Below, piece after piece: positions 5,486 through 9,061 of a stretch of DNA of 53,889 nt. The DNA comes from Planktothrix serta PCC 8927 (GTDB lineage: Bacteria; Cyanobacteriota; Cyanobacteriia; Cyanobacteriales; Microcoleaceae): positions 318,411 through 372,299 of the forward strand of contig NZ_LR734878.1 in NCBI RefSeq assembly GCF_900010725.2, written 5' to 3'. Made by a program: the position numbers and the translations under genes. The notes beneath the pieces are model-generated. The model was given only the letters and a program-made list of their open reading frames with translations, was not told the DNA's origin and did not search any database. The first letter of the stretch is position 1, and each line of letters begins with the position of its first letter.

Positions 5486-6427
5486 TCAGGTTATAATTAA
5501 AAGGATTAAAATAAACAATCCAATTCCTCCTAATAAAATTACACCAGCCACAATAATAATTAACTTACGAATTTCTTTTTCCTGTTTCTGTTTTAACTTA
5601 GCTTCCTGTTGCTGACGTTTGAGTTCGGCTTTCTGTTGACGTTGTAATTCAGATTCTTGCTGACGTGTTAACTTAACTTCGCGTTTTTGTTGTAATTCTT
5701 CCTGTTTCTGACGTTTGAGTTCATCTTTTTGTTGGTGTTTGAGTTCAGTTTTCTGTCGGCGTTTGAGTTTGGCTTCCTGTTGATGCTGTAATTCAATGTG
5801 GTGATTTTGAATTAATTCCTCATACTGTTCATTTAAGCGAAGGCGATAAGTTTGCAAATTATCAAAAATCGAATTAATATTAATTTCAGATTGAACATTT
5901 AAAGGATTAGCAGAGGTTAAATTAAGAGATTGTTCAAACTGCATTAAAGCGTCAATTAACCGACTCCAATCATATTTTTCTATAAATTCTGTACTATCGT
6001 TCTCATCTGTCCAGTTCTTTAATTCAATTAAAATAATATCGACTAAATAGCGGAGAGCATTTTTAATCACGGGATATTGTTGAGAATCAAAGTAATATTC
6101 TAGTAACTCAACAAAATTCAATAACAACCCGCTATCAATAGCAATCTGATTCATCAAATCTAGGCGTTTAGCATATAGAATTTTCTCTTTTTTTACAGTA
6201 TCTTGATTAGCAGCCAATAAAGGCAAATGATCAATTCCAGAAAAAATCGAATGATTTCTTTTTTCGTCGTTAATTTTAGTGTTTATAGTTTTTAACTCTG
6301 GTTTAATCTCTTGTATAAATTGCAAAAAATTAGAAGAATCAAGTTCAGAACTGCCAAGAGATAACTGTATTTTTTCTACAATATTGATTAGCTGATTTTT
6401 TAAGCTTAAGACTTTGGCAACATCCAT
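5486..6427 (-). CDS. Tail-anchored coiled-coil protein, unknown function
   Basis: A 313-residue protein of unknown family. Residues 1-200 are alpha-helical and leucine-rich. About 205-290 is a long highly charged coiled coil built from repeated KRQQ, LKRQQ and ELKRQ units. A single hydrophobic segment at 292-312 (starting LIIIVAGVILLGG) ends the protein, so it should be C-terminally anchored with the bulk in the cytoplasm. The ATG is preceded by AGGAGGTATAATA, a consensus ribosome site. It is the downstream-most of three minus-strand genes after the PIN pair, separated by 92 bases, and could be part of that unit. A structural or scaffold role is possible but unproven. Confidence 0.65.
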   Translation of the reverse strand: MDVAKVLSLKNQLINIVEKIQLSLGSSELDSSNFLQFIQEIKPELKTINTKINDEKRNHSIFSGIDHLPLLAANQDTVKKEKILYAKRLDLMNQIAIDSGLLLNFVELLEYYFDSQQYPVIKNALRYLVDIILIELKNWTDENDSTEFIEKYDWSRLIDALMQFEQSLNLTSANPLNVQSEININSIFDNLQTYRLRLNEQYEELIQNHHIELQHQQEAKLKRRQKTELKHQQKDELKRQKQEELQQKREVKLTRQQESELQRQQKAELKRQQQEAKLKQKQEKEIRKLIIIVAGVILLGGIGLFILILLIIT

Positions 6428-6519
6428 TATTATACCTCCTGGCTAGTCGGATTAATTCTTATAGAACTGTAATCTAACATATTATTGAAGTTAAAGACAA
6501 GTGAGTCTGGATGCTGGCA

Positions 6520-7008
6520 TTAACTTAATTCACCGTTAGTTAGAATATTAGGCCACTCATAAATAGATATTCCATGATTAGGAAATCGAGATAAATCTTT
6601 TAAGTCAGTCGTGACAATAATCACTTGTTCAAAAAAATCTTTTTGTCCAATAGCTTGAGCAACCAGAATAGCATCTCCATCTAAACTCTTTGGATGCGAT
6701 CCACCTTTTCCTTGCTTCCGTATTTCTGCCCACAATTGAGCAGCTTTTAACATGGTTTTTCGCTCTAAAGGTATTAGGAGATTCTGTAACAAATCTAAGC
6801 GGTCAATGCTTTTATTGAGGTTTTCTAAAAGTAGATTTCGACGAAGTTCATAATCTATTATTTCTGGAATTCGCAACTCAAAATCATTCTGATTGAGATA
6901 TTCCAACCATTCTCTAATTTCTACATGATACTCACGTTTTTCGTGCTTATATTTAGGATGAACTATAGTTCCTAAAGGCCCAGAATCTAATAGTATAACT
7001 TTACTCAT
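6520..7008 (-). CDS. PIN-domain protein (VapC-like nuclease)
   Basis: A 162-residue PIN-fold protein, expected to be a metal-dependent RNase. The acidic active-site set is visible: D8 in LLDSG, E54 in IPEIIDYE, D110/D112 in SLDGDAI and D135 in IVTTDLKDL. Length and layout match VapC-type toxins, although this subgroup (helical insert between residues 55 and 90) is not the shortest classical VapC. The start lies 8 bases after the stop of the phycobiliprotein-like gene, so the two are one operon with the partner first, the usual order for an antitoxin-toxin pair. The target RNA cannot be read from sequence. Confidence 0.85.
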   Translation of the reverse strand: MSKVILLDSGPLGTIVHPKYKHEKREYHVEIREWLEYLNQNDFELRIPEIIDYELRRNLLLENLNKSIDRLDLLQNLLIPLERKTMLKAAQLWAEIRKQGKGGSHPKSLDGDAILVAQAIGQKDFFEQVIIVTTDLKDLSRFPNHGISIYEWPNILTNGELS

Positions 7009-7016
7009 TCAATTTT

Positions 7017-7751
7017 TTATAAAGATAAGGAATTAGATTTTAGAGCCTGTTCTACTAAAGGATATACTTCTTGATCATAGCCCGATTCATCTCTTGTCCA
7101 TTCCGCAAAGATATTAATTAAATCATCTAAAGATCCTTTTTTATTAGCAACTTTTGATAGATGATTTGAGGAAGTGGTTTCAATCTTAGATACTTCTGTT
7201 GTATTTTCCAGTGATAGTTGAGCATCTGAAAAAGTTTCTCGGTTTTCATTACTAGACAATTTTGTAATAAAATAATCGAGATAAAATGCTATTTCTTGAC
7301 TGGCTTGAGTCCCCAGTTCATTACTTACAAAACTAATAGTAACTTTTTTCAGGAGTTGAATAGCATTAATAGTTTGATCAATAGACAGATTAATAGATTT
7401 GTAGGTTTCCTCTCTCAGACCGTTGAGAACCCGATCATCTAAAATAGAAGTATCACCTTCTAGCATTGCATACATAGAATAACGCAAAAAATACTCTAAA
7501 TCGTGCTGAAAAGCTTCGATTCTCTGAATTCTATACTGATTATCCTCACTAGGGATAGTATTTTCAGACAAAGAATAATCTCTCAAAACTTCATTGATAA
7601 TTTGATCTGCGTTTTTAGCAATAAATCCAGCAACATGAACTCTCAGGCTGTTTGTATGAAGGTCATCTTCGATCTTTTCAATAGCCCACTTATCAATATA
7701 CGTTCCTTGGCTTTCAGCTTCCCTAATAATTTCTTTAATATTTTCTATCAT
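7017..7751 (-). CDS. Phycobiliprotein-like protein without bilin cysteine, antitoxin-like tail
   Basis: A 244-residue protein. Residues 1-165 align with allophycocyanin alpha-type subunits: FLRYSMYAMLEGDTSILDD and RVLNGLREETYKSI (about 88-120) are close to the ApcA signature, and SQEIAFYLDYF (151-161) matches the ApcA C-terminus. The chromophore-attachment cysteine of CxRDxDYxLRY is replaced: F81-Q82-H83-D84, so no thioether bilin bond at that site is possible. After a Ser/Thr/Glu-rich linker (165-205), residues 207-240 read LDDLINIFAEWTRDESGYDQ and PLVEQALKSN; I recall similar DESGYD tails in small proteins beside cyanobacterial PIN genes. It is the first gene of an operon with a PIN nuclease 8 bases downstream. 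I infer a PIN-neutralising role, not a light-harvesting one. Confidence 0.75.
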   Translation of the reverse strand: MIENIKEIIREAESQGTYIDKWAIEKIEDDLHTNSLRVHVAGFIAKNADQIINEVLRDYSLSENTIPSEDNQYRIQRIEAFQHDLEYFLRYSMYAMLEGDTSILDDRVLNGLREETYKSINLSIDQTINAIQLLKKVTISFVSNELGTQASQEIAFYLDYFITKLSSNENRETFSDAQLSLENTTEVSKIETTSSNHLSKVANKKGSLDDLINIFAEWTRDESGYDQEVYPLVEQALKSNSLSL

Positions 7752-7814
7752 TGTATTTTCCCCAATAGGTGTTTTTGATAGAACTAGCTATTGCATTATA
7801 ACAAAATCAAAGGC

Positions 7815-7848
7815 TTACTGTAGAGAACCTAACCTTTCTCTACAGTAA
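7815..7848 (-). terminator. Hairpin after sqdB
   Basis: A perfect inverted repeat, TTACTGTAGAGAA / TTCTCTACAGTAA, with an 8-base loop, lies just downstream of the sqdB stop and upstream of the PIN operon on the same strand. The T-run is weak, so termination is likely but not certain. Confidence 0.6.
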
Positions 7849-7861
7849 ACATGATCCTAAA

Positions 7862-9061
<1,200 letters not shown>

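What the first reader, a model, noticed from the sequence alone, without database searches (positions are those of the whole stretch)
6520..7751. A bilin-less phycobiliprotein paired with a PIN nuclease
Seen: an allophycocyanin-alpha-like domain (FLRYSMYAMLEGD, RVLNGLREETYKS) with the attachment cysteine replaced by Phe81, followed by a linker and a DESGYD-containing tail; a PIN gene with D8, E54, D110/D112, D135 begins 8 bases later. Known: PIN toxins are usually preceded by a small antitoxin that inserts a C-terminal tail into the nuclease. Inference: a globin-fold phycobiliprotein relative has become the body of an antitoxin or light/redox/bilin sensor controlling an RNase. A non-covalent bilin is possible since Asp84 is kept.
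Basis: partly seen in the sequence, partly recalled or inferred. Interest (0 to 1): 0.82.

Follow-up and report, generated by a model that had tools for sequence, protein, structure and literature searches.

The report
Light-harvesting protein turned toxin antidote
A cyanobacterium seems to have joined a retired light-harvesting (phycobilisome) protein, which has lost its pigment anchor, to the antidote tail of an RNA-cutting toxin gene next door, and similar joins probably arose at least twice more in other cyanobacteria, hinting that the cell may tie a growth brake to the state of its light antenna.

Summary
Window 7017-7751(-) encodes a 244-aa protein: an allophycocyanin-beta-type body (PF00502, E 5.7e-33), a linker and a 38-aa tail; a PIN-fold protein starts 8 bases downstream. 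The body is beta-, not alpha-type; the bilin cysteine is Phe81, the pocket Arg is His83, Asp84 is kept. A profile of eight tails found upstream of related PIN genes elsewhere hits this tail at 4e-13, so the pair is most likely a VapBC-like toxin-antitoxin unit with a phycobiliprotein body in place of a DNA-binding domain. The exact fusion was seen in no other genome searched; two of nine sister Planktothrix genomes show an empty site. The principle recurs: CpcA-derived bodies carry another antitoxin tail before another PIN family (13 places, 11 of 243 genomes, including a second locus here), and CpeB-like bodies do so in two named genomes. AU tests reject shared origins for the three unions tested. 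One body keeps the full bilin site. Against: three newly found places of the tail lack a PIN neighbour. Inferred: neutralisation. Speculative: the body couples the toxin to phycobilisome degradation. Nothing was tested at the bench.

The parts
7017..7751 (-). 244-aa putative antitoxin (P0001): phycobiliprotein body + linker + antitoxin tail
7254..7751 (-). allophycocyanin-beta-like body, residues 1-166 (Phe81 at 7509-7511, His83, Asp84 at 7500-7502, Asn71 kept)
   Evidence: PF00502 E 5.7e-33; apcB best NCBIfam; trees; AF2 ten-residue block means 74-96 except two blocks at 57 and 58; Foldseek best hits are AP beta chains
7134..7253 (-). linker, residues 167-206, low confidence in the model
   Evidence: AF2 pLDDT under 50 at 183-205
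7020..7133 (-). PIN-antitoxin-type tail, residues 207-244, two predicted short helices (208-220, 226-238) at low confidence
   Evidence: profile of 8 tails beside PIN relatives, P0001 left out: 4.4e-13 among window ORFs; helices
6520..7008 (-). 162-aa PIN-fold putative RNase toxin (P0002); D8, E54, D110, D112 invariant in the family
7795..7824 (-). promoter-like site upstream of the antitoxin gene (TCTACA-18-TATAAT, 10 of 12)
   Evidence: 7 such sites found in the region, mean 6.0 in shuffles, so weak
6469..7763 (.). segment absent at the same site in sister genome G179, where the flanks are contiguous

Best explanation
The pair is a VapBC-like toxin-antitoxin cassette. The C-terminal tail of P0001 binds and silences the PIN ribonuclease P0002 (inferred from homology and position). 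The N-terminal body is a retired allophycocyanin-beta-type subunit that stands where a DNA-binding or other antitoxin body is usual (shown by sequence, tree and fold). My leading idea for the body's job, held at about 0.35 and not shown, is that it makes antitoxin stability or location depend on the phycobilisome: it may still associate with phycobilisome subunits or be recognised by the machinery that degrades them (NblA-ClpC). Loss of the antenna would then free the RNase and slow growth. The confidence given is for the first part, a PIN antitoxin with a phycobiliprotein body; it was lowered from 0.82 to 0.78 after a recheck showed that the newly found places of the tail have no PIN neighbour.
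For: Tail homology to ORFs upstream of PIN relatives; the three nearest PIN relatives (51-52% identity) all carry this tail type on other bodies (L019-L021). PIN fold. Gene order antitoxin-toxin, 8-base gap. Empty site in G179 and G239. Other phycobiliprotein-bodied antitoxins beside PIN genes, AU tests p 0.0037, 0.00014, 0.00045 against shared origins. CpcA-type body under purifying selection in the genus (dN/dS 0.17-0.35, 10 pairs). For the coupling idea: NblA guides ClpC to phycobilisomes (PMC7760959, passages; PMC4103541, passages); cyanobacterial VapB10 is degraded by ClpXP2 (PMC3834315, passages).
Against: No toxicity, binding or neutralisation test exists. The exact fusion is known from one genome only, so selection on it cannot be measured. 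The reverse search with the tail (176 genomes, 10 places) added only three places not already known from the PIN side, and none of the three has a PIN ORF beside it: two are tandem in one genome, the second followed by a 158-aa ORF that looks Uma2-like by eye, and one is a short broken frame; so the tail may serve other nucleases too. A profile of the 93 other-type tails does not detect P0001's tail. In the second locus of this genome the PIN ORF is shortened (95 aa against 136-142 aa), one other relative has a split PIN, L321 has 85 aa, and 16 of 52 ORFs with the second tail had no PIN ORF in the position window, tandem first copies among them. The body kept only 38 of 65 AP-beta/ApcF-invariant positions, so binding to phycobilisome partners is doubtful.
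Confidence: 0.78

Rival explanations
1. The phycobiliprotein body is an inert spare part: a stable helical fold that dimerises or solubilises the antitoxin, with no link to light harvesting. Bodies are swapped at random onto the tail.
For: Bodies upstream of the two PIN families vary widely in length and sequence; named by Pfam above cut-off only for PF00502 and Methylase_S (PF01420 in L346); weak, below cut-off, HicB-like (L019) and PhdYeFM (L112); 5 of the 9 scanned had no match at E<=0.01. In 7 of 8 phycobiliprotein bodies at least one bilin-site residue is gone.
Against: Three separate captures of phycobiliproteins is many for a random choice, though these proteins are abundant and have many gene copies. 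The CpcA-type body is under purifying selection, which a scaffold would also show.
Confidence: 0.42
2. The body is a light, redox or bilin sensor controlling the RNase.
For: Asp84 and Asn71 kept in P0001. The Lyngbya body L317 keeps Cys, Arg and Asp of the bilin site, so for that relative it is open.
Against: In P0001 Cys81 is Phe and Arg83 is His. Only 1 of 8 aligned antitoxin bodies keeps all three pocket residues.
Confidence: 0.07
3. No toxin-antitoxin function: a decaying phycobiliprotein gene fused by chance to an antitoxin remnant, or two unrelated neighbours.
For: The exact fusion was seen in one genome only; long terminal branch and odd composition of the body; the three new places of the tail have no PIN neighbour.
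Against: Both ORFs are intact, the PIN acidic residues are present, the tail is in frame at the right end, the PIN fold is predicted well, and analogous fusions recur.
Confidence: 0.12

Closest known systems
VapBC type II toxin-antitoxin systems (PIN toxin), including cyanobacterial vapBC10 of Synechocystis
   Same: PIN-fold protein with invariant acidic residues, putative antitoxin gene just upstream with a C-terminal tail; nearest solved folds include VapC proteins
   Different: The antitoxin body is a phycobiliprotein fold; PMC3834315 (abstract passage) defines VapBC by a DNA-binding antitoxin, and no DNA-binding domain was found above cut-off here
PIN pairs with other or unnamed antitoxins in cyanobacteria, e.g. 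PIN with COG5559/DUF2281 or 'hypothetical' partners in Synechocystis (PMC4963859, table seen in passages)
   Same: Antitoxin-toxin order; the second PIN family here also has short partners with a common tail
   Different: A link of our short partners to DUF2281 was not shown: two scanned (L179, L197) matched no Pfam family. Some members carry a phycobiliprotein body instead
Allophycocyanin beta / ApcF
   Same: Fold, 41-44% identity to 11 ApcB rows, Asn71 and Asp84 kept
   Different: No bilin Cys or Arg; extra linker and antitoxin tail; gene beside a PIN gene

Membership tests
VapBC toxin-antitoxin | toxin with PIN fold | tested here: met
   AF2 pLDDT 88.5 and VapC hits; 15 of 22 relatives match PF01850 at E<=1; P0002 alone does not
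VapBC toxin-antitoxin | conserved acidic active-site residues | tested here: met
   D8, E54, D110, D112 invariant in 22 sequences
VapBC toxin-antitoxin | antitoxin with a DNA-binding domain | tested here: not met
   PF00502 is the only Pfam match above cut-off in P0001; one weak winged-helix hit (MCM_C, E 0.14, below cut-off). Called VapBC-like, not filed as VapBC
VapBC toxin-antitoxin | C-terminal tail that occupies the toxin | tested here: inconclusive
   tail homologous to tails beside PIN relatives; contact not modelled
VapBC toxin-antitoxin | toxin arrests growth, antitoxin rescues | not testable with these tools
   needs an expression test
Phycobiliprotein (PF00502) | profile match over the whole domain | tested here: met
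   5.7e-33, residues 8-165, profile 2-155 of 155
Phycobiliprotein (PF00502) | covalent bilin site (Cys, Arg, Asp) | tested here: not met
   Phe81, His83, Asp84
Phycobiliprotein (PF00502) | assembly with a partner subunit into trimers | not testable with these tools
   no complex modelling; interface residues not mapped on coordinates

The most novel reading that the evidence does not exclude
Phycobiliprotein-bodied antitoxins are baits. Planktothrix phage PaV-LD (HQ683709 ORF022L) and Microcystis phages (PMC9229316, passages) carry nblA. An antitoxin wearing a phycobiliprotein body could be destroyed by the same NblA-ClpC route, freeing the PIN RNase and aborting infection: an integrated-decoy toxin-antitoxin system, assembled at least three times. 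In unstressed life the same trigger would be nitrogen starvation. The same tail on restriction-specificity (Methylase_S) bodies would then guard restriction systems.
Probability: 0.2. Interest if true: 0.95.

Novelty: new variant of a known kind. Interest (0 to 1): 0.77.

Why it matters
Antitoxin bodies are commonly DNA-binding domains. Finding abundant photosynthetic proteins reused as antitoxin bodies, apparently three times and with different tails and PIN families, suggests that the tail is a portable neutralising tag and that the body may choose what the toxin watches. If the body reports on the phycobilisome, it would link a light antenna to RNA-based growth arrest and make the long debate on what chromosomal toxin-antitoxin loci are for testable in a laboratory cyanobacterium.

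Tried and rejected
Rejected: alpha-type body for P0001 (trees 55, 99). Rejected: single origin of the phycobiliprotein antitoxins (three unions, AU tests; long branches are in play). Not separable: ApcB against ApcF as the source of the P0001 body (AU p 0.40; later tree 98/85 with ApcB). Not borne out: names given by eye to other bodies (ribbon-helix-helix, DUF2281, an ATPase): L143, L179, L197, L102 and L114 matched no Pfam family at E<=0.01. Led nowhere: a scan of genome contigs with P0001 (57 pattern matches, none a relative); P0001 in phages (no match) and plasmids (5 records, none covering 80% of it); P0003 in plasmids (no match); PADLOC (one weak hit for P0001, E 0.0061, none for the four others); Rfam over 6000-8200 (none); a class-wide profile search for CpcA-type fusions (291 genomes; in the rows listed only G000 reaches the tail, the others end at position 170 or before; list cut). 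PIN relatives do occur on 4 plasmid records (42-45% identity); their neighbours were not read. Not tested: whether the alpha-beta interface is specially conserved (no coordinates in the script box). Ten paper searches were made; those aimed at toxin-antitoxin together with phycobiliproteins or cyanobacteria or at PF00502 and antitoxin fusions showed no report of a phycobiliprotein antitoxin in the listings; only the held open-access library was searched, and only listings, abstracts and the passages cited were seen.

Full report
What is there. The window carries, on the minus strand, a 244-aa ORF (7017-7751) and a 162-aa ORF (6520-7008), 8 bases apart. The first has PF00502 over residues 8-165 (E 5.7e-33) and ranks apcB (118 bits) above apcA (58.8) in NCBIfam. 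Of 65 columns invariant in 11 ApcB and 4 ApcF rows, 38 are kept; Cys81 is Phe, Arg83 is His, Asp84 and Asn71 are kept. In allophycocyanin Asn71 of the beta subunit is the methylated residue whose side chain touches the chromophore (PMC4414346, passages). The AF2 model has a body with ten-residue block means of 74-96 apart from two at 57 and 58, a linker under 50, and two short tail helices at low confidence. Foldseek puts allophycocyanin beta chains first, with target-normalised TM about 0.7, query-normalised 0.48 and rmsd about 9 A.

The PIN protein. P0002 alone finds no Pfam or NCBIfam family. Relatives exist in 130 of 291 genomes of the order at E<=0.001. In an alignment of 22 sequences (chosen from the 110 loci held), D8, E54, D110 and D112 are invariant; 15 of 22 match PF01850 at E<=1, best 6.3e-6; the profile finds PDB chains only weakly (1y82, E 0.011); the model (pLDDT 88.5) matches VapC structures.

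The tail, from the PIN side. 110 loci with a PIN relative (30, 80) gave 112 PIN ORFs; 6 under 120 aa were dropped, 4 had no ORF in the position window, and 102 upstream ORFs remained, P0001 among them (recounted). Eight others carry the tail type '..DEWMxDESGYDEExxP..'. A profile of these eight, P0001 left out, hits P0001 at 4.4e-13 among window ORFs, the next ORF at 0.16; a profile of all 101 other tails hits it at 2.6e-6; a profile of the 93 other-type tails does not hit it. Among the 102, only P0001 passes a phycobiliprotein profile (4.8e-35, next 0.19).

The tail, from the tail side. A search with the tail in 176 genomes gave 10 places in 9 genomes. Seven have a PIN ORF directly downstream, but these are the own pair and six loci already known from the PIN side (two of them with a weakly matching other-type tail), so they are not independent. 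The three new places have none: L305 and L309 are tandem in one genome, the second followed three bases later by a 158-aa ORF that looks Uma2-like by eye, and L306 is a short broken frame. The tail may thus serve more than PIN proteins.

Recurrence of this pair. With the whole P0001 as query, no other genome of 388 (order, E<=1e-20), 338 (class, E<=1e-33) or 10 (genus, E<=1e-33) shows body plus tail; the other matches listed fit canonical ApcB-like genes (the order list was cut after its best rows, and in the two large searches about 7-8 candidates per genome were scored). At the same site, of nine sister genomes, G179 has the flanks contiguous and G239 16 bases apart; G269 has another ORF pair there, G126 and G109 show that other pair beside sqdB, and the other four were not resolved or differ. 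So the pair behaves like a cassette gained here or lost elsewhere. The genus is Planktothrix: G109's match has the same coordinates as P. rubescens PCC 7821, LR882958.1.

A second and third case. The own genome holds another PF00502 gene (P0003, 206 aa, 62 bits) with a different tail, followed with 4-base overlap by a PIN-like ORF of only 95 aa. Relatives with body and tail occur at 13 places in 11 of 243 genomes, the own one counted. Ten loci were read: 9 have a PIN ORF of 136-142 aa overlapping by 4 bases, 1 has it split in two. The partner PIN P0005 passes the PF01850 cut-off (33.8 bits). A named-genome scan gave 44 loci with 52 ORFs bearing this tail, 36 of them with a PIN ORF within -60 to +120 bases and 16 without, tandem first copies among them. 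Ten of the 44 loci carry phycobiliprotein bodies: L310-L316 and L318 repeat, by identical printed proteins, genomes already seen; L317 (Lyngbya sp. HA4199-MV5, PF00502 1.1e-40) and L321 (Pseudanabaena sp. SR411, 3.5e-25; its PIN ORF is 85 aa) are beta-type.

Independent origins. In a 63-row tree P0001 sits inside ApcB+ApcF (100/91) and the CpcA-type bodies with CpcA (100/99); holding them together is rejected (AU p 0.0037). In a 70-row tree P0001 groups with ApcB (98/85), the two beta-type bodies with two CpeB rows (100/91), and two further unions are rejected (p 0.00014 and 0.00045). The tool warns of long branches and odd composition for P0001 and P0003. Within Planktothrix the CpcA-type body has dN/dS 0.17-0.35 in 10 pairs and the PIN 0.04-0.22 in 6 pairs; the tail has too few changes to judge.

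Bilin site. Of 8 aligned antitoxin bodies, Cys is kept in 3, Arg in 1, Asp in 5; all three only in L317. The alignment is gappy just before the site.

How it may work. Shown: architecture, homologies, gene order; supported: independent capture. Inferred: the tail silences the PIN RNase. Open: the job of the body. The coupling idea rests on published facts, not on data here: NblA binds phycobiliproteins and ClpC (PMC7760959 and PMC4103541, passages); phage PaV-LD of Planktothrix carries nblA (HQ683709 ORF022L), and its transfer into Synechocystis is said to degrade phycobilisomes (PMC4103541, passage), while the same paper says there was no direct evidence that the NblA of phage Ma-LMM01 degrades host phycobiliproteins; antitoxin VapB10 is cut by ClpXP2, not Lon (PMC3834315, passages). 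An inert scaffold explains the data about as well.

Literature. The Synechocystis toxin-antitoxin catalogue PMC4963859 and the survey PMC2701414 hold 0 occurrences of 'phycobili' in their main texts (passages seen). The searches listed in Tried and rejected showed no report of such an antitoxin; that is limited to the held open-access library.

Noticed in passing
L346, L349, L350, L352 (ORF from 1510): 548-554 aa proteins that end in the second antitoxin tail and precede a PIN ORF; L346 has a type I restriction specificity domain (PF01420, 1e-12), the others look alike by eye.
   Followed up: partly
L012:1480-2384: Second phycobiliprotein-bodied antitoxin in the same genome; its PIN-like ORF is 95 aa against 136-142 aa in nine relatives.
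   Followed up: yes
L317:2965-3576: Antitoxin-tailed CpeB-like protein that keeps Cys, Arg and Asp of the bilin site: a possible pigmented antitoxin.
   Followed up: partly
L305:1393-2163: The first tail type, here inside a 96-aa ORF, followed by a 158-aa ORF that looks like a Uma2-type nuclease by eye, not a PIN.
   Followed up: no
L331, L337, L338, L339: 307-327 aa proteins in records titled as non-cyanobacteria, with the second tail; 2 of 4 have a PIN ORF right behind; L331 has no Pfam match at E<=0.01.
   Followed up: no
L114:759-1667: 302-aa ORF ending in an antitoxin-like tail before a PIN ORF; no Pfam match at E<=0.01.
   Followed up: partly
L011, L013, L016 (G000): 160-168 aa divergent PF00502 proteins; no PIN-like neighbour was noticed by eye in their loci.
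   Followed up: no
L262, L263, L265 beside sqdB: A different two-ORF pair (142 aa plus 157-167 aa) next to sqdB, where the window has the toxin-antitoxin pair: a site of turnover.
   Followed up: no
window 5486-6427: 313-aa protein with glutamine/lysine-rich repeats and a hydrophobic C-terminus next to the insertion site; several partial matches between sisters suggest the repeats vary.
   Followed up: no
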